NCBI RefSeq assembly: GCF_021353295.2
Contig: NZ_CP120635.1
Location: 843,501 to 907,500, forward strand
DNA: 64,000 nucleotides
Origin: Pseudodesulfovibrio thermohalotolerans
GTDB taxonomy: Bacteria; Desulfobacterota; Desulfovibrionia; Desulfovibrionales; Desulfovibrionaceae
Direction: 5' to 3'
Every line of letters begins with the position of its first letter. Position 1 is the first letter of the stretch. This document shows, piece by piece, positions 39,760 through 46,920 of the stretch. A model generated the notes under the pieces. The model was not told the DNA's origin, searched no databases, and saw only the letters and a list, made by a program, of their open reading frames with translations. The position numbers and the translations under genes were made by a program.

Positions 39760-40723
39760 GGTCATCGAATTGGTCAACGTGCCTCCGGCAATAACCTGGG
39801 AGATTCTGGAGCCGCTCGCCCTGGCCCTGCTCACGTCGGCGGCCGTCGCGGTTCTGCTGGCCGGGGTGCTCGTCCTGGCGGGAAGAAGCGGGGAAGGCCG
39901 CAGGACCCTGTTCGCGACGGGCATCGCCTCGGCCATGACCGGCATGGGCGCGCTCGCCTTGTCTCTGGGCAACCCCTTCCATCTCTACATGTTCATGATT
40001 TCGCCCGCCTTCAGTTCCTGGACGACCATCGGCACCTTCCTGCTGCCAGTGTTTCTCGGGATGTCCCTGCTGGCCCTGTACCTGGACGCTGGGGATGACG
40101 GCATGGCCAGGCCCGTGGCCGGGCTGGCGATCCTCTTCGCCCTGGGCGTGCTGGTCTACGCGTCTCGCGAGATAGGCTACCTCAAGGGCAGGGTCATGTG
40201 GACCTCCGCGATGCTGCCGTTCGGCTTCGCGCTGGCCGGACTGTCCGGCGGCGCGGGGCTGGCCGCGCTGTTGGGCGGGCTTCGGCGGCAGGCCGCGCCG
40301 GGCTGGCTGCTCCTGGCCATGAGCGGAGCGTCCCTGGCCTGCGCCGGGGCCGGTTTCCTGCTCACTCCGCCCGAGGGGTATGTCCTGGCCGCTCCCGGGG
40401 TCTGGAACGCGCTTTCGCTGATCGGAGTCGTCGGAGCCGTCCTCGGCCTGATCGCCCTCAAGGCGCGGGGCCTGGCGTCTCTGGCCGGGCTGGTCGGCTA
40501 CGGCGCGGGGCTGGGTTTCTTCGTCCGGCTCATCTTCCTCGGCCAGGCGGTCCCCCGCAAATCGTTTACCGCCGTCGACGCGGGTGCGGCGGCCCATCTC
40601 GTCTCGGCCCAGTCCCTGTTGTCCATCGCCGGAAGCCTGGTCTTCCTGGTGGGGCTCGGCCTGGTCCTGAAGTCCCTTTTCAGCAACGTCGCCACGGCGA
40701 GGAAGGAGCATTCCCATGGATAA
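39752..40723 (+). CDS. ttrC: Tetrathionate reductase membrane subunit TtrC (NrfD family)
   Basis: A 323-aa membrane protein with about nine hydrophobic helices (e.g. ALLTSAAVAVLLAGVLVLAG, TIGTFLLPVFLGMSLLALYL). NrfD-type proteins oxidise menaquinol. WEILEPLALALL near the start is a common NrfD opening. ATG 39752 follows GGAGGTGG. It is coupled to ttrB (8-nt overlap) and ttrA (8-nt overlap). Confidence 0.82.
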   Translation: MPRVIELVNVPPAITWEILEPLALALLTSAAVAVLLAGVLVLAGRSGEGRRTLFATGIASAMTGMGALALSLGNPFHLYMFMISPAFSSWTTIGTFLLPVFLGMSLLALYLDAGDDGMARPVAGLAILFALGVLVYASREIGYLKGRVMWTSAMLPFGFALAGLSGGAGLAALLGGLRRQAAPGWLLLAMSGASLACAGAGFLLTPPEGYVLAAPGVWNALSLIGVVGAVLGLIALKARGLASLAGLVGYGAGLGFFVRLIFLGQAVPRKSFTAVDAGAAAHLVSAQSLLSIAGSLVFLVGLGLVLKSLFSNVATARKEHSHG

Positions 40724-43700
40724 AGACAGACGCGAACTCGTCAGGAACGGCCTCGCGGCCGCCGGGCTGGGTGTTCTCGGCGCGGCCGCTCTCCTCAAGC
40801 CGGGCAGAGCCGGGGCCGAACCTTCGGCCGGCGTTGCCGAGGACCCGAAGAAGGTCTCTCCCCGATCCCTGTCCCCGGAATACGAGCGTACCGCCGATGG
40901 CGAAGTGCGGCTCGGCAAGGGGAGCCGCATCGCTTTCAACCAGTGTTGGGGATGCACCACCTTCTGCGGCGTGCGCCTGCACATCGACGAGGCCACCGGC
41001 AAGGTGGTCCGGGTGGCGGGCAACCCGTACAACCCGCTGTCCCACGAGAAGCATTTTCCCATGTCCATGCCGGTGAAGGAAGCGCTCGACCGGCTGTCCG
41101 CCGACAAGGACATGGGCCATGCCCAACGGTCCACGGTCTGCGGGCGCGGGGCGGCCATGTTCGAGGCCGCGGACAGTCCGTTTCGCATCACCCACTGCCT
41201 CAAGCGCGCGGGCAGGCGCGGGGAGAACAAGTGGACGCGCATTCCTTTCGAACAGTTGGTCCAGGAGGTGGTCGAGGGCGGCGACCTCTTCGGCGAAGGC
41301 CACGTGGACGGACTGCGCGCCATCCGCGATCTCAAGGAACCCGCCAACCCCGAGCGTCCCGAGTTCGGCCCCAAGAGCAATCAACTGCTCCTGACCTATG
41401 CCGTGGACGACGGGCGCAGCGACTTCTTCTTCCGCCGGTTCGGCATGAAATCCTTCGGAACCAAGAACTTCGGCAAGCACGGGGCGTATTGCGGCCTTTC
41501 CTTCCGCATCGGCTCGGGTATGTTCATGGACGATCTGGCCAAAAACGCCCACATCAAGCCGGATTACGCCAACTGCGAGTTTGCCCTGTTCTGGGGCACG
41601 GCGCCGTCCCAGGCGTCCAACCCGTTCAACCGGTCGGCACGGCTCCTGGCCTCCGCCCGCACCGACGGCAAGCTGCATTATGCGGTCATCGACCCCGTGC
41701 TGCGTATGCCCGCTTCGGACGCGGCCCGAGAGCGATCCAGCTGGGTGCCCATCAACCCCGGCATGGACTCGGCACTGGCCATGGGCATGATCCGCTGGAT
41801 CATCGAGAACAGGCGGTACGACAGGAATTTCCTGGTTCGTCCCAATGTGGCGGCCGCCGGGAAGGCGGGCGAAATCAGCATCTGCAACGCCACCTACCTG
41901 GTGGCCCGGTCCGGCGCGTCCAGCGGGAAGTTCCTCCGCGCGGCCCAGCTTGGCCTTGGCGGCGATGAGGAATTCGTCGTCATGGATGCGGCCACCGGCA
42001 AGCCCGTCTCTTCGGAGAAATGCGACGAGGGCGTGCTGGAGTTTCGGGGCGAGATAGTCCTGGCCTCGGGCGAGACCGTGGAGGCGGCCACTTCTTTCCA
42101 GCTTCTCGCGGATCAGGCCATGACCCACGGGCTGGACGAGATGTCCGCCGTGTGCGGCGTGCCCGTGGAAAGAATGATCGAGCTGGCCCGGGAATTCACC
42201 TCCCACGGCAAGAGGGCGGCGGTGGACGTGCACGGAGGCATGATGAGCACCTCGGGCACCAACGCCACCTTCACCGTCCTGACGCTGAACACGCTCATCG
42301 GCAACATCAACGCCAAGGGCGGCATCTCGGCCACGGCGGGCAATTTTCACGGCCCGGCCATGAAGGGGCCGAAGTACGATCTGGACGGGTTCCCCGGCGC
42401 GATCAAGGCCAAGGGGTTCCCGGCCGTGCGCTGCCGCGCGCCGTACCAGAAGTCCACGGAGTTCAAAAAGAAGAAGGCCGCCGGACAGAATCCCTACCCG
42501 GCGCAGTATCCCTGGTATCCGTTCACCCCGCCGAACATGCCCGCCGAGCACCTGCTCAGTCACGTGAACGGCTATCCGTTCCGCTACAAGTGCTGGATCA
42601 ACTGGACCGGCAACGTCATTTACGGCCACGGCGGACTTCAGCGGGCCGTGGATGAGAGTCTCCGCGACCCCGGGAACCTGCCGCTGATCGTCGGCATCGA
42701 CACCTTTCACAACGAGACCAACGCCTATGCCGACTATCTCGTTCCGGACCCGTGCATGTTCGAGGGGTGGGGCGGATTCTCCGGCGCGTGGTCCGGCGTG
42801 CTGACCAAGATGTCCACGGCCCGCTGGCCCGCCGTGGAGCCCCGGCAGGAGCGGACGGCGGACGGCCGCCCGGTGTGCATGGAGCAGTTCCTCATTGAGG
42901 CGGCCAAGCGCATGGGACTGTCCGGATTCGGCGATAATTCCATTCCGGCGGAAGACGGCTCGGTCGATCCGCTGAACGGGCCCGAGGACTACTATCTGCG
43001 GCTGGCGGCCAACATCGCCTTCTTCAAGGGGCAGAAACTGCCCGCCCCGAGCGACGAGGATGTCGCGCTGTCCGGCATCGGACGCATCCTGCCGGATATC
43101 GAGCGCACTCTGCGGTCCGGCGAGCGCGGCCCGGTCGCCGCCGTGTACAGCCGGGGAGGCCGGTTTGCGCCATACTCCAAGAGCTACGAGGGCGAATGGC
43201 TCGGCGGGCGGTGGAAGCGGACCATGCAAATCTACAACGAGACCGTGGGCACGTCGATCAATTCCCAGACCGGCGAGCCATATCTCGGCGTGGCCTCGTT
43301 CATGCCGCCCAGGCTGTGCGACGGGAGCGAGCTGCGCACGGTCTGGACCACGGACGACTATCCCTTTGTCATGACCTCGTTCAAGTCGAACCTGATAAAC
43401 TCCTACGCCGTGGTCCTGGACCGGCTGCGGGCCATCAAGCCCCTGAATATGGTCATGGTCAACGACAGGGACGCCGCCGGGCTCGGTCTGGCCCACGGCG
43501 ACGAGGTGGAGATCGAAAGCCCGGCCGCCGCCGTTCGCGCCAGGGTGGTGGTCGGCGACGTGGTCGCCCCCGGCGTCATCGCCGTGGAGCACGGTTTCGG
43601 CCACCGCGCCCTTGGGGCGGCGAACGTCGAGGTGGACGGCTCGGTCATCCCGGCCAACCCGGGCGCGGCTGGCGGCTTCAGCCTCAACGACCTCGTCCCG

Positions 43701-43799
43701 GAAGACCCCACCCGCCGGGGCGCATCCACGCTCCAGGAACACGAAACCGGCGCGGCCGCCCGCCAAGGCATCCCCGTGCGCCTCAAGCGGGTCGGCTGA
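40716..43799 (+). CDS. ttrA: Tetrathionate reductase molybdopterin subunit TtrA
   Basis: A 1027-aa Mo-bisPGD enzyme of the DMSO reductase superfamily, close to the known TtrA length. An N-terminal Tat-like signal (DRRELVRNGLAAAGLG) is followed by the 4Fe-4S motif QCWGCTTFCG with a further Cys at VCGRG (residues ~74-145). HGAYCGLSFR at ~255-264 supplies the Mo-ligating Cys. NETNAYADYLVPD and the C-terminal ADVVAPG-type beta-barrel fold are standard. It reduces tetrathionate to thiosulfate in the periplasm. Arsenate and other sulfur-oxyanion reductases are close relatives, so the substrate is likely but not certain. Confidence 0.85.
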   Translation: MDKDRRELVRNGLAAAGLGVLGAAALLKPGRAGAEPSAGVAEDPKKVSPRSLSPEYERTADGEVRLGKGSRIAFNQCWGCTTFCGVRLHIDEATGKVVRVAGNPYNPLSHEKHFPMSMPVKEALDRLSADKDMGHAQRSTVCGRGAAMFEAADSPFRITHCLKRAGRRGENKWTRIPFEQLVQEVVEGGDLFGEGHVDGLRAIRDLKEPANPERPEFGPKSNQLLLTYAVDDGRSDFFFRRFGMKSFGTKNFGKHGAYCGLSFRIGSGMFMDDLAKNAHIKPDYANCEFALFWGTAPSQASNPFNRSARLLASARTDGKLHYAVIDPVLRMPASDAARERSSWVPINPGMDSALAMGMIRWIIENRRYDRNFLVRPNVAAAGKAGEISICNATYLVARSGASSGKFLRAAQLGLGGDEEFVVMDAATGKPVSSEKCDEGVLEFRGEIVLASGETVEAATSFQLLADQAMTHGLDEMSAVCGVPVERMIELAREFTSHGKRAAVDVHGGMMSTSGTNATFTVLTLNTLIGNINAKGGISATAGNFHGPAMKGPKYDLDGFPGAIKAKGFPAVRCRAPYQKSTEFKKKKAAGQNPYPAQYPWYPFTPPNMPAEHLLSHVNGYPFRYKCWINWTGNVIYGHGGLQRAVDESLRDPGNLPLIVGIDTFHNETNAYADYLVPDPCMFEGWGGFSGAWSGVLTKMSTARWPAVEPRQERTADGRPVCMEQFLIEAAKRMGLSGFGDNSIPAEDGSVDPLNGPEDYYLRLAANIAFFKGQKLPAPSDEDVALSGIGRILPDIERTLRSGERGPVAAVYSRGGRFAPYSKSYEGEWLGGRWKRTMQIYNETVGTSINSQTGEPYLGVASFMPPRLCDGSELRTVWTTDDYPFVMTSFKSNLINSYAVVLDRLRAIKPLNMVMVNDRDAAGLGLAHGDEVEIESPAAAVRARVVVGDVVAPGVIAVEHGFGHRALGAANVEVDGSVIPANPGAAGGFSLNDLVPEDPTRRGASTLQEHETGAAARQGIPVRLKRVG

Positions 43800-43873: not shown

Positions 43874-43982
43874 TGTACGTTTGCCCGCCAAAGCGCGAAG
43901 TCTGATTTGCGGGTGAAGTCGTATATAAGATATTTTATTGACGTTTCATTTGTGCTATGCCGATTCTCAAATGGGAGTTCAA

Positions 43983-46160
43983 ATGGATATTTACGCGCAC
44001 TCATTGGAGAATACGGGACCGGAAAATTGGCAGACGCTGGAAGATCACCTGCGGAACGTGGCGGACAGGGGGGCCGGTTTCGCCGGTGCTTTTGGGGCTG
44101 CGGAATGGGGGCGCATACTCGGCGCGTATCACGACATCGGCAAGCGCAATCCAAAGTTCCAGCAGCGGTTGACGGGCGAATACACCGGCCACGCCGACCA
44201 CAAGGGGACCGGAGCCAGGCTCTTCGACGAACTCGGCAACGCTTTCGGGCGCATGGCCGCCTATTGCATCGCCGGGCACCATAGCGGATTGCCGGATTTT
44301 TATGGAACCGATTACGGGGCATCGTTGGGCCGGATCATTGAAAAGGCTTACGCTTTGCCCGACGACAATCCGCTGGACGGCCTTGAGCCGCCCGAGTGGC
44401 CGTTTATGCCGCAAAACGGTTTCCAATGTTCCTTTTTGATTCGAATGCTCTTTTCTTCCCTGGTGGATGCGGACTTTCTCGACACCGAATCGTTCATGGA
44501 CGCCGAGAAAAGCTCGTGGCGTGTTTCGGGACCGTCCCTCGAATCCCTGCGAGCTGCCCTGGACCGCAAGCTCGCCGAGTTTGACGGTGCGGGCCGGATC
44601 AACGGGCTGCGTGCCGAGATACTGGCCCACTGCCGGAAACAGGCCGTCCTTGATCCCGGCCTGTTCACCCTGACCGTCCCCACCGGCGGCGGCAAGACCC
44701 TGTCATCCATGGCGTTCGCCCTGGATCACGCGCTCAGGCACGACATGCGGCGGGTGGTCCATGTCATCCCGTACACCTCCATTATCGAGCAGAACGCCCG
44801 CGTTTTCCGCGACGTGTTCAGGGAGTTCCCCGGCGCGGTCGTCGAACATCACAGCAATTTCGACGCGGATTCAACCTTTGGCGGCGTGGACAACGCACGC
44901 GAGTCCGAAGCGGCCCGCCGTCATCGGTTGGCCTGCGAGAACTGGGACGCGCCCGTGGTGGTCACCACCAACGTGCAGTTTTTCGAGTCCCTGTTCGCGG
45001 CCAAAACGTCTCGTTGCCGCAAGCTGCACAATCTGGCCGGGTCGGTGATCGTTCTGGATGAGGCGCAGATGCTGCCCGTGGATTTCATGGACCCCTGCCT
45101 GCGCGCCCTTGAGGAGCTTGCCGCCCATTACAGATGCAGTGTGGTCCTGTGCACGGCCACCCAGCCCGCTTTGCGCCGGGAGGATTTCGCGCGCGGCCTG
45201 GCCGGGCTTGACGGACGCGAGCTGGCCCCGGACCCGGTTAGGTTGCACAAAGCCTTTGAGCGGACGGAGCTGCACGATCTCGACGAGTTGGGCCTCCCGG
45301 AAGTGGCCGATCTGGTCCGGGAGCGGGATCAGGTCCTGTGCATAGTCAACACTCGCGCCCGGGCGTCCGAGCTGTTCGGGATGATTAGGGACGAATCCGG
45401 GGCGCGGCACCTGAGCGCGTTGATGTGCCCGGCCCATCGCTCCGAACGGCTGAACGAGATCAGGGCCATGCTGTCGGCCGGAAAGCCGTGCCGCGTGGTG
45501 TCCACGCAGTTGGTCGAGGCAGGCGTTGACGTATCATTCCCCGAAGTGATCCGTGAGATGGCGGGGCTGGACTCCATTGTCCAGGCGGCGGGACGGTGTA
45601 ACCGCGAGGGCGAACGCGAGGGGACCGCGCCGGTGTCGGTGTTTTACCCGGCGGAGGGTTTGCCCAAGGCCTTTGCCGCTCAGGCGGGACATGCGGCTTC
45701 GGTGCTGCGCGGCCCGGAAGGAAGGGACCCGTTTTCGCCCGAGGCCGTAAAGCGGTATTTCGGGCTGCACTACTGGCTGGAGAGCGACCATATGGACCAA
45801 AAGAGAATCATGGAGTCCCTGGGCGATGAAGACGGGAAAGGGGAATGGTATTTCAAGCGGGCCGAGCATGACTTTCGGCTTATCGACAACCCCATGGTTC
45901 CGGTCATTATCCCTTGGGACGACACGGCGCGGAAGCTGTTGGACGATCTTCGTTACGCCGAGCATCCGGGCGGAATCCTGCGCAGGCTGCAACAGTACAC
46001 GGTGCAGGTTTACGACCGCCAGTTCAAGGCGCTGGATGAAGCCGGCGGCCTGGAGATGGTCGTCGACGGATGCGCCGCGCTGAGTCGAGAGGAGTTGTAT
46101 GACGATTTGTTCGGCCTGGCCGTGCTTACTGACTCTTTTTCCAAGAGTTTTATCTTTTAG
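43983..46160 (+). CDS. cas3: CRISPR-associated helicase/nuclease Cas3 (type I-C)
   Basis: A 725-aa Cas3 that degrades DNA marked by Cascade. The HD nuclease domain comes first (AHS at 5-7, YHDIGKRNPKFQ with His50-Asp51, later GHHSGLPDF). The helicase has Walker A PTGGGKTLSS (~residue 234), DEAQMLP, CTATQPAL and STQLVEAGVDVSF...QAAGRCNREGE. ATG 43983 follows GGGAG by 5 nt; an in-frame ATG at 43971 is an alternative. It stands 760 bp apart from the other cas genes, although in most I-C loci cas3 and cas5 are nearly contiguous. Confidence 0.93.
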   Translation: MDIYAHSLENTGPENWQTLEDHLRNVADRGAGFAGAFGAAEWGRILGAYHDIGKRNPKFQQRLTGEYTGHADHKGTGARLFDELGNAFGRMAAYCIAGHHSGLPDFYGTDYGASLGRIIEKAYALPDDNPLDGLEPPEWPFMPQNGFQCSFLIRMLFSSLVDADFLDTESFMDAEKSSWRVSGPSLESLRAALDRKLAEFDGAGRINGLRAEILAHCRKQAVLDPGLFTLTVPTGGGKTLSSMAFALDHALRHDMRRVVHVIPYTSIIEQNARVFRDVFREFPGAVVEHHSNFDADSTFGGVDNARESEAARRHRLACENWDAPVVVTTNVQFFESLFAAKTSRCRKLHNLAGSVIVLDEAQMLPVDFMDPCLRALEELAAHYRCSVVLCTATQPALRREDFARGLAGLDGRELAPDPVRLHKAFERTELHDLDELGLPEVADLVRERDQVLCIVNTRARASELFGMIRDESGARHLSALMCPAHRSERLNEIRAMLSAGKPCRVVSTQLVEAGVDVSFPEVIREMAGLDSIVQAAGRCNREGEREGTAPVSVFYPAEGLPKAFAAQAGHAASVLRGPEGRDPFSPEAVKRYFGLHYWLESDHMDQKRIMESLGDEDGKGEWYFKRAEHDFRLIDNPMVPVIIPWDDTARKLLDDLRYAEHPGGILRRLQQYTVQVYDRQFKALDEAGGLEMVVDGCAALSREELYDDLFGLAVLTDSFSKSFIF

Positions 46161-46203: not shown

Positions 46204-46268
46204 GGGAGAGGTTAGCGTGGATTGAAACACTAGTTAGGATTTATGTACTTATGTCGCTAACCTCTTCC
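46204..46268 (+). ncRNA. crRNA-like element: partial CRISPR repeat plus pseudo-spacer, framed by a 14-bp stem
   Basis: GCGTGGATTGAAAC (46215-46228) is identical to the last 14 bases of the array repeat and contains the whole 11-nt crRNA 5' handle. It is followed by a 24-nt AT-rich pseudo-spacer (46229-46252, starting ACTAGTTAGGATTTAT) and GTCGC (46253-46257), which equals the repeat's first five bases. The flanks pair: GGGAGAGGTTAGCG (46204-46217) with CGCTAACCTCTTCC (46255-46268), including one G-U pair. TTGACG at 46167 could be its -35, with TTAATA at 46194 at non-ideal spacing. Such guides in CreTA and CreR systems steer Cascade to repress a promoter. Transcription is not proven. Confidence 0.65.
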
Positions 46269-46279
46269 TATCTAGTGAA
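46266..46279 (-). promoter_or_regulatory. PAM-flanked match to the pseudo-spacer, site 1 (minus strand)
   Basis: On the minus strand TTC (46277-46279) is followed by ACTAGATAGGA (down to 46266). It equals pseudo-spacer positions 1-11 except position 6 (A for T). TTC is the known type I-C PAM and sits on the correct side. Position 6 is a base flipped out of the type I crRNA-DNA duplex, so the mismatch should be harmless. Confidence 0.6.
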
Positions 46280-46363
46280 TTGTTTTCACTTGCCGTCGTC
46301 ACTTTTTTCGGATACGACAGGTTAAACATCTTTGATGTGATTAAGCGCACGGGTGTCCAGGCA

Positions 46364-46567
46364 ATGTCAGATCATTCAGGAGTTTCACTAGATATGATTT
46401 ATACTAAAATTAAATTTCGACATTTGACTGTATTCTTTTGTCGCCTTGCGATTGATTTAGGTATGCTGCCTGCCGATTGGCTTTTGTCTATCCAATTGGT
46501 TTTCGGGGTTGTGTCTATCCTTGTTGGCTTTTTGAAAAAACAAAATAAAAGGGGCTGTACCAGGTAA
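46364..46567 (+). CDS. Putative small single-pass membrane protein (possible CreT-like toxin)
   Basis: A possible 67-aa protein starting MSDHSGVSLDMIYTKIKF, with one predicted membrane helix near the C-terminus (WLLSIQLVFGVVSILVGFLKK) and a basic tail KKQNKRGCTR. An internal ATG at 46394 with AGGAG 11 nt upstream is an alternative start giving 57 aa. Small hydrophobic proteins of this kind are typical type I toxins. The second PAM-flanked site lies on its 5' end. Codon use is AT-rich, unlike its neighbours. Its stop codon falls inside a strong hairpin. Could be fortuitous. Confidence 0.35.
   Translation: MSDHSGVSLDMIYTKIKFRHLTVFFCRLAIDLGMLPADWLLSIQLVFGVVSILVGFLKKQNKRGCTR
46384..46402 (+). 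promoter_or_regulatory. PAM-flanked match to the pseudo-spacer, site 2 (plus strand)
   Basis: TTC (46384-46386) is followed by ACTAGATATGATTTAT (46387-46402), which matches pseudo-spacer positions 1-16 except positions 6 and 9. The PAM is in the right place for type I-C. With site 1 it forms an inverted repeat TATCTAGTGAA/TTCACTAGATA enclosing about 104 bp. Confidence 0.6.
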
Positions 46568-46594
46568 CTAATTTTGGTTATCTGGTACAACCCC
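46533..46594 (-). terminator. Intrinsic terminator on the minus strand within the AT-rich insert
   Basis: GGGGCTGTACCAGGTAAC (46551-46568) pairs with GTTATCTGGTACAACCCC (46577-46594) at 17 of 18 positions. Read on the minus strand the stem is followed by TTTTATTTTGTTTTTT. It implies a transcript running leftward from the region upstream of cas5c, for which I see no gene. Confidence 0.75.
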
Positions 46595-46920
46595 AAACAA
46601 AAAAATTAGAACATTGCATCGCAAAAGGAGTATTCAGGTAAATATTTGAATGAATATTTTATTTTCTTTCTCGCTATATGCTTATTCTGAAGCACAATCA
46701 CTGCAGGTAATAACTTATGACTTGAGAAGTGGGCAAGTTTTAATCGATAGTATTGGTGTACGAGTGCTTATTTGTTTATTCTGTGTTTTGTTTTGATGTT
46801 TTTAAGTGAGCATATAACAGTTCAAGATAACAATTAAATCAATATGTTTTGAATATTTTTATTGTTGTTCAAATAGTTGGTTTTGAATAAGGTCCGCAGA
46901 CAAACAACACGGAGGTGTGA

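What the first reader, a model, noticed from the sequence alone, without database searches (positions are those of the whole stretch)
46204..46402. crRNA-like guide inside the cas locus with two TTC-flanked target sites
Between cas3 and cas5c lies the last 14 bases of the CRISPR repeat followed by a 24-nt pseudo-spacer. Within 160 bp are two sites that start with the type I-C PAM TTC and then match the pseudo-spacer from base 1: site 1 (minus, 46279 downward) at 10 of 11, site 2 (plus, 46384 onward) at 14 of 16. Both mismatch at position 6, the first flipped-out base in type I guide-DNA duplexes. This is the logic of CreA/CreR guides, which lead Cascade to repress a toxin or cas promoter. I know of no described example in a Desulfovibrio I-C locus.
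Basis: partly seen in the sequence, partly recalled or inferred. Interest (0 to 1): 0.94.

Follow-up and report, generated by a model that had tools for sequence, protein, structure and literature searches.

The report
CRISPR guide silencing a neighbouring gene
Between two genes of its CRISPR defence system this bacterium carries a lone CRISPR-like guide sequence whose only two close, correctly flanked matches in the genome lie right beside it, and it likely leads the defence complex to switch off a small, possibly toxic neighbouring gene, so that losing or blocking the defence would be punished.

Summary
At 46215-46228 lie the last 14 bases of the array repeat, then a 24-nt guide and GTCGC, the start of a second half-repeat. 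Two TTC-flanked sites match it at 10/11 (minus, 46276) and 14/16 (plus, 46387); in the 3.89-Mb genome no other place fits TTC plus seed with at most one mismatch.

Comparative evidence is strong. Among 26 lone repeat tails at the cas3-cas5c junction of the order, 17 have a TTC site matching 9-10 of 10 seed bases (1-5, 7-11); guides swapped between loci give 0 of 632. Mismatches pile up at positions 6, 12 and 18, the flipped-out bases of a type I duplex. In the congener G010 guide and target changed together at five positions. With loci from other phyla, 26 of 151 I-C loci have guide and site.

I read the window element as a CreA-type antitoxin guide in a type I-C system: site 2 covers the start codon of a 57-codon hydrophobic ORF. 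Three distant loci carry a HicA-family ORF beside such a guide; others look like CreR-style cas autorepression. Expression, Cascade loading and toxicity are inferred. A known kind, in a subtype for which I found no report.

The parts
43938..46160 (+). cas3 (HD + helicase), upstream border of the module
   Evidence: TIGR01587 and TIGR01596 above cut-off
46204..46217 (+). left arm of the stem that encloses handle and guide
   Evidence: complementary to 46255-46268; RNA fold z -2.9; flush cross-guide stem of 13 or more pairs in 5 of 26 elements against 1 of 650 swaps
46215..46228 (+). psi-R1: 3' end of the CRISPR repeat, including the predicted 11-nt 5' handle
   Evidence: 14/14 identical to array repeat end; handle length recalled
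46229..46252 (+). psi-S: 24-nt guide (array spacers about 32-36 nt)
   Evidence: matches sites 1 and 2
46253..46268 (+). psi-R2: GTCGC start of a second, degenerate half-repeat; 46255-46268 is the right arm of the stem
   Evidence: read from sequence
46266..46279 (-). target site 1: PAM TTC + 11 nt, 10/11 (1-5 and 7-11)
46290..46318 (+). possible -35/-10 (TTGCCG-17-TACGAC, 7 of 12) of the small ORF, 10 nt beyond the PAM of site 1
   Evidence: by inspection only; below the threshold; placed by analogy with other loci, where a -35-like hexamer follows the PAM of minus-strand targets after 2-9 nt (11 of 12, the window being the twelfth)
46378..46382 (+). Shine-Dalgarno-like AGGAG, 11 nt before the ATG
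   Evidence: read from sequence
46384..46402 (+). target site 2: PAM TTC + 16 nt, 14/16, covers the start codon
46394..46567 (+). 57-codon ORF, hydrophobic C-terminal segment; predicted cargo (toxin-type)
   Evidence: 19-residue hydropathy maximum 2.29; no Pfam; one homologue, P0001
46924..47586 (+). cas5c, downstream border of the module
   Evidence: TIGR01876 196.9 bits
47586..49313 (+). cas8c
   Evidence: TIGR01863 519 bits
49317..50198 (+). cas7 (type I-C)
   Evidence: TIGR02589 383.8 bits
52314..54600 (+). CRISPR array (repeat GTCGCCCCCCACCCGGGGGCGTGGATTGAAAC); runs on beyond the end given here
   Evidence: 37 copies counted

Best explanation
The element is predicted to make a crRNA-like guide of the CreA kind that likely loads the type I-C Cascade and leads it to two TTC-flanked sites, one just upstream of and one over the start codon of a small 57-codon ORF, which Cascade would thereby keep silent. 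Shown: guide, the two sites, the lack of other such sites in the genome, and the covariation of guide and target between loci. Inferred: the RNA is made, held by Cas5c through its TGGATTGAAAC handle, and pairs over 11-16 nt, which would be enough for binding but too short for Cas3 cleavage. Inferred from the neighbouring ORF and from HicA-family cargo in other loci: the ORF product (peptide or RNA) is harmful, so loss or inhibition of Cascade would release it (addiction to CRISPR-Cas, or death on meeting an anti-CRISPR). Site 1 overlaps the end of the guide gene and may also give autoregulation.
For: Exact handle, PAM and seed geometry; no other such site in the genome. Same layout in congener G010: guide, then a TTC site over the start codon of another small membrane-type ORF, with mismatches at 6, 7, 12, 18 and 24 of 24; five concerted guide/target changes against the window (8, 10, 13, 14, 15). 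17 of 26 order-wide elements have a TTC site with 9 or more of 10 seed matches, against 0 of 632 swapped guides (pairs with like seeds left out) and 9 of 5200 shuffled seeds; of 64 trinucleotides only TTC (17 loci), TTT (3) and ATA (1) flank such sites. Mismatches over 22 sites at 6/12/18: 16/16/19; at 13-15, not used for selection: 2/4/4. In related pairs 10 of 12 guide changes at positions 13-17 are followed by the target, 0 of 8 at 6, 12 and 18. In 11 of 12 minus-strand targets a -35-like hexamer follows the PAM after 2-9 nt (no shuffle control). HicA toxin family (PF07927, 53.9-55 bits, cut-off 27) in L144, L145 and L154 beside the guide. Nine of 12 congeneric loci lack the module and have a gap of about 25-35 bp, so it is likely an insert.
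Against: No expression or binding data. No clear promoter for the ORF (one search lists none there), and the window's site 1 is the one minus-strand target of 12 without a listed -35 close to its PAM. The ORF has no known family and one homologue, in which all six substitutions inside the frame fall in residues 57-79 of the 95-residue open frame and none in the first 56: no sign of protein-level constraint in its C-terminal half. Site 2 is intragenic, not a promoter target. Other loci with the same guide anatomy have no cargo ORF (L072, L106), and 11 of 37 loci with a handle-like motif have no site of 9 or more, so a guide alone does not prove a toxin. With one mismatch allowed, about two chance matches per genome would be no surprise (backward control).
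Confidence: 0.6

Rival explanations
1. CreR-type autorepression: the guide leads Cascade to damp transcription of cas5c-cas8c-cas7, and the small ORF is incidental.
For: In I-C loci without cargo the target sits right before a -35-like hexamer, followed by the guide and cas5c (L072, L106). In L176, L181, L191 and L205 reverse-oriented guides match sites inside the gap before cas5c (places read from the gaps printed). The window target could block read-through from upstream into cas5c.
Against: In the window site 2 ends 521 bp before cas5c and lies over an ORF with a Shine-Dalgarno-like sequence; the same start-codon position recurs in G010. No promoter is evident at either site.
Confidence: 0.2
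2. A functional guide that controls only itself: site 1 overlaps the end of the guide gene, site 2 is a leftover copy.
For: Site 1 has the 1-5/7-11 match and touches the right arm; in G022 a site of the same quality overlaps the TTGACA before the guide.
Against: Site 2 has the longer match (14/16); its counterpart in G010 is the only good site listed there and changed in concert with the guide.
Confidence: 0.1
3. A decayed array unit with a self-matching spacer, no longer functional.
For: Only the 3' half of psi-R1 and the first bases of psi-R2 resemble the repeat.
Against: Handle, seed, PAM and stem are all kept; guide changes are followed by the target at paired but not at flipped positions, which needs selection.
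Confidence: 0.06
4. Chance similarity in AT-rich DNA.
For: The gap is AT-rich (36% GC), which raises chance matches among AT-rich 11-mers.
Against: Expected 0.01 in the window; swap control 0 of 632 in the same kind of gaps.
Confidence: 0.02

Closest known systems
CreTA of haloarchaeal type I-B (Haloarcula hispanica, Halobacterium hubeiense; PMC8501985: abstract, outline, passages and section 14 seen)
   Different: Type I-C here (Cas5c in the place of Cas6); target over a start codon as well as upstream; cargo is a 57-codon ORF, not a four- or six-codon tRNA-sequestering RNA; the two half-repeats pair with each other around the guide
CreTA of Acinetobacter type I-F (PMC10097628: passages and section 8 seen)
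   Same: Lies in an enlarged cas3-effector gap (cas3-csy1) that a reference strain lacks; two half-repeats; short guide (20-nt psi-S in the mature RNA); PAM-flanked target near a mini-ORF with a Shine-Dalgarno sequence, with the start of transcription upstream of the target
   Different: I-F, Csy4 processing of local hairpins, PAM CC; the toxin is an RNA with a 33-bp ORF
CreR (PMC12737573 and PMC13131331: passages seen; original not held)
   Same: crRNA-like guide with partial promoter match; several cargo-less I-C loci found here have this layout
   Different: Named for I-B, I-E and V-A in PMC13131331 (PMC12737573 says type I and V-A); the window has a small ORF at the target
CrePA (PMC12737573: section 10 seen; original not held)
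   Same: Protein toxin repressed by Cascade and a crRNA-like CreA
   Different: CreP typically has a KilA-N domain; the window ORF has no Pfam domain, and other I-C loci carry HicA

Membership tests
CreTA | crRNA-like guide with degenerate repeat(s) next to cas genes, outside the array | tested here: met
   (sequence only; RNA not shown)
CreTA | PAM-flanked target nearby with partial pairing (seed 1-5, 7-11) | tested here: met
   rule from PMC8501985
[quoted passage not shown]
   site 1 is upstream of the ORF but no clear promoter is seen; site 2 is over the start codon
CreTA | the regulated gene is toxic (tRNA-sequestering or other toxic RNA) | not testable with these tools
   needs expression; no known family
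CreTA | guide RNA is made and repression needs Cascade | not testable with these tools
   no transcript or binding data
CreR | target on the cas operon promoter | tested here: inconclusive
   sites are 521 bp or more before cas5c; no promoter assigned
CreR | no toxin gene coupled to the guide | tested here: inconclusive
   57-codon ORF under site 2, toxicity unknown
CrePA | KilA-N protein toxin | tested here: not met
   no Pfam match up to E 1 for the ORF
Type I-C CRISPR-Cas (host system) | cas5c, cas8c, cas7 of I-C with cas3, cas4, cas1, cas2 and array | tested here: met

The most novel reading that the evidence does not exclude
The cas3-cas5c junction of type I-C loci, from Desulfovibrionales to Gammaproteobacteria and Clostridia, is a cassette slot: a lone guide, its PAM-flanked operator and an exchangeable cargo (nothing, a membrane peptide, or a HicA toxin) are inserted and lost again, making Cascade either its own repressor or the antitoxin of whatever sits there. 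In the window form the guide sits in the loop of a stem made by the two halves of one split repeat, so that it may enter Cascade without the usual Cas5c cut.
Probability: 0.45. Interest if true: 0.88.

Novelty: new variant of a known kind. Interest (0 to 1): 0.77.

Why it matters
If true, RNA-guided toxin repression and cas autorepression extend to type I-C, in bacteria from several large groups. It gives a simple rule for finding more (enlarged cas3-cas5c gap, lone repeat tail, TTC site with free positions 6, 12 and 18) and a set of natural guide/target pairs that show how much pairing type I-C Cascade needs to bind without cutting. HicA-family ORFs beside such guides would link a classical protein toxin to Cascade control, and anti-CRISPR phages would face a built-in penalty.

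Tried and rejected
Rejected: the hairpin at 46551-46594 as a terminator of the small ORF (one search finds no T-tailed stem on either strand; its copies in other genomes, point to a repeated palindromic element). Rejected: position 6 mismatch as a required feature (16 of 22 mismatch = unconstrained). The cross-guide stem as a general feature: stems of 8 or more pairs are not more frequent than in swaps (7 of 26 against 154 of 650); only a subset has long flush stems (13 or more pairs: 5 of 26 against 1 of 650), others have a local hairpin after the guide. Led nowhere: Rfam (one sub-threshold snoRNA match), plasmids (DNA), phages (protein), Pfam for six cargo ORFs (two sub-threshold matches only). 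A handle-free scan of 16 loci had a TTC-flanked site among its listed hits in L145, L154 and L174 only, and missed reverse-oriented guides; one search repeated it with handles on both strands. Not followed: Cas5c hits under 66 bits were not fetched; one search kept the best 80 of 178 relatives; most pattern hits look like array units and were not examined.

Limits of the controls. Seed matches were used to select sites, so only positions 6 and 12-18 are informative in the mismatch profiles; the best site was also chosen by matches over 17 positions and PAM was limited to TTC/TTT, and no swap control was run on that larger set. The swap control left out 18 of 650 pairs with like seeds. In short gaps (95 of 151) little sequence was searched. 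The pairs are not independent (two triples). The -35 distances have no shuffle control. The tree has several long branches and left out four loci without a long cas3 frame.

Full report
What is there. The window holds a complete type I-C locus: cas3, cas5c, cas8c, cas7, cas4, cas1, cas2 and an array with the repeat GTCGCCCCCCACCCGGGGGCGTGGATTGAAAC. Between cas3 and cas5c lies a 763-bp gap with 36% GC. In it, GCGTGGATTGAAAC (46215-46228) equals the end of the repeat; the 24-nt guide ACTAGTTAGGATTTATGTACTTAT follows, then GTCGC, which is how the repeat begins. The bases before and after (46204-46217, 46255-46268) pair with each other around the guide; folding gives z -2.9, with 4 of 200 shuffles as good.

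Chance. TTCACTAGNTAGGA with up to one mismatch occurs twice in the window (expected 0.01) and nowhere else in the 3.89-Mb genome. The same call's control, the pattern read backwards, also has two matches, so two chance matches per genome would be no surprise; that both lie within 160 bp of the guide is what needs explaining.

Relatives in the genus. Of 36 genomes of the genus, 13 have a Cas5c hit, 12 of them close. Nine of these 12 have cas3 and cas5c about 25-35 bp apart (for L020 the script printed 5 because of another frame; the cas3-length frame ends 25 bp before cas5c); three (window, G010, G022) have an enlarged gap with a lone repeat tail. The genus is that of Pseudodesulfovibrio. In G010 the element is 78% alike over 65 bp; guide ACTAGGTTGAATGATTTTAGAATG meets TTC-ACTAGTATGAAAGATTTAAGAATA with mismatches at 6, 7, 12, 18 and 24 only. 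That target again covers the start codon of a small ORF (74 codons, membrane-type C-terminus). Between window and G010, the guide changed at six paired positions, and guide and target changed together at five of them: 8, 10, 13, 14 and 15. G022 has two sites matching all ten seed bases, one overlapping a TTGACA before the guide. In G010 a copy of the cas3 tail stands again before cas5c, which suggests insertion at the junction (read).

The order. 100 of 348 genomes have a Cas5c hit. I fetched the upstream stretch of 72 places, 66 bits and better, and with the 12 of the genus examined 84. 26 carry a repeat tail in the gap. Of these, 17 have a TTC site with at least 9 of the 10 seed bases (1-5, 7-11); guides swapped between loci reach that in 0 of 632 cases and shuffled seeds in 9 of 5200. 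Among all 64 trinucleotides such sites are flanked only by TTC (17 loci), TTT (3) and ATA (1). Of the nine others, three have a TTT site with 9-10 (L067, L101, L114), three reach 8 with TTC (L076, L083, L102) and three have nothing of 8 or more (L078, L107, L116; in L116 I see by eye a TTC site that lacks one base at position 6). Over 22 TTC/TTT sites mismatches are 16, 16 and 19 at positions 6, 12 and 18, and 2, 4 and 4 at 13-15. In seven related pairs (not independent), guide changes are followed by the target in 17 of 19 cases at seed positions (biased by selection), in 10 of 12 at positions 13-17 (not used for selection) and in 0 of 8 at 6, 12 and 18. A cas3 tree of 80 loci needs at least 16 gains or losses for 23 element rows (shuffled labels 19.9 on average, 12 of 500 as low; several long branches), so the module comes and goes.

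Beyond the order. A genome scan for Cas5c kept the best 80 of 178 relatives; 13 duplicate loci of the order set. In the 151 distinct loci, handles on either strand were sought: 37 have a handle-like motif (10 or more of 12), 26 of them with a TTC (23) or TTT (3) site of at least 9 of 10 seed bases. These make up 25 of 49 gaps of 120 bp or more, 1 of 7 unresolved and 0 of 95 shorter gaps (where little sequence was searched). The 11 without such a site are L076, L078, L083, L099, L102, L107, L116, L139, L144, L188 and L192; L144 and L192 reach 8 with TTT. Mismatches over the 26: 6: 18, 12: 20, 18: 21; 13-15: 1, 5, 3; from 17 on near random. Four guides point the other way: L176 (title: uncultured Clostridia), L181 (Lachnospiraceae), L191 (Oscillospiraceae) and L205 (Aeromonadaceae); the handles of L181 and L205 are only 10 of 12.

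What is regulated. In the order, 11 of 12 minus-strand targets lie right before a -35-like hexamer, 2-3 nt in six loci and 8-9 nt in five; the twelfth is the window's site 1 (no shuffle control). Downstream follows either a small ORF and then the guide (L073, L077, L094; also L116, whose target is doubtful), or the guide at once and then cas5c (L072, L106). The former look like CreTA, the latter like CreR. In three distant loci (L144, L145, L154) the ORF after the guide is of the HicA toxin family (PF07927); their sites are 8/10 with TTT, 10/10 with TTC, and 9/10 with TTC behind a weaker handle (9 of 12). Vibrio metschnikovii CIP 69.14 (L174) has a 49-codon ORF with a membrane-type C-terminus, which I read by eye from the gap printed (hydropathy), between target and guide. 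In the window and G010 the guide comes first and the site covers the start codon of the ORF.

The window ORF. 46394-46567, 57 codons, AGGAG 11 nt upstream, hydropathy maximum 2.29 over 19 residues. No Pfam family, no match in phages. One homologue in a search of 5.8 billion proteins that needs shared 5-residue words, P0001, 95 residues because its frame was called from further upstream. It is 88/95 identical to the same frame here; apart from the first residue all six changes fall in residues 57-79. This does not show protein-level constraint, so an RNA-level function or a fast-changing peptide are both open.

Mechanism. Shown: guide, PAM, seed, covariation, position. From the literature: in haloarchaeal I-B CreTA the same 1-5/7-11 pairing with TTC is what repression needs, and changes at 6 and 12 are tolerated (PMC8501985, passages); in Acinetobacter I-F a CreTA module lies in the cas3-csy1 gap (PMC10097628, passages and section 8). 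Inferred: the RNA is made, is held by I-C Cascade and represses the small ORF; the ORF product is harmful. The 11-nt handle of I-C crRNAs, the need of Cas5c for a local hairpin and the flipped-out sixth bases of type I duplexes are recalled, from no call; here the local hairpin is missing because psi-R1 lacks its 5' half, so either the split-repeat stem replaces it or the RNA is not cut.

Known or new. Reviews name CreTA, CreR and CrePA (PMC12737573, passages and section 10); [quoted passage not shown] 'I-C' does not occur in the main texts of PMC8501985, PMC9458426, PMC12737573 or PMC10097628 (word counts). Ten library searches gave no I-C example among the listed papers, but the library lacks most subscription papers; the original CreR and CrePA papers and a survey of CRISPR-derived regulatory elements that I recall were looked up and are not held. 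So: a known kind of regulation, in a subtype for which I found no report, with a cargo and an RNA anatomy of its own.

Noticed in passing
window 46542-46604: Long hairpin (arms GGGGCTGTACCAGGTAAC / GTTATCTGGTACAACCCC at 46551-46594) with many partial copies in genomes of the genus; the small ORF ends inside it.
   Followed up: partly
L144, L145, L154, cas3-cas5c gap: HicA-family ORF after a lone guide; L144 and L145 also have an ORF on the opposite strand that looks HicB-like by eye (no Pfam match above cut-off).
   Followed up: partly
L176, L181, L191, L192, L205: Lone repeat tails on the opposite strand between cas3 and cas5c; four of five with 10/10 TTC sites inside the gap before cas5c, which looks like CreR.
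   Followed up: partly
L077, L094: The cargo ORFs of two loci are alike (MEYRK..WHFCKNC.., four cysteines); a search with the L077 one gives six proteins, one in Desulfobaculum xiamenense.
   Followed up: partly
L019 1436-1473: A second copy of the cas3 C-terminal tail stands just before cas5c in G010, as if the module had been inserted with a duplication of the junction.
   Followed up: no
window 46120-46160: The last codons of cas3 (LTDSFSKSFIF) differ from those of close relatives such as G002 (...EYFLA), perhaps because of the insert.
   Followed up: no
L116: Apparent target that lacks exactly the base at position 6 (AGAAT-GTGTCTTT), PAM TTC, read by eye.
   Followed up: no
L078, L102: Two or three lone repeat tails in a row in gaps of more than 800 bp, without a site of 9 or more.
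   Followed up: no
window 40716-43799: Large ORF upstream of cas3, by eye a molybdopterin oxidoreductase; not tested.
   Followed up: no
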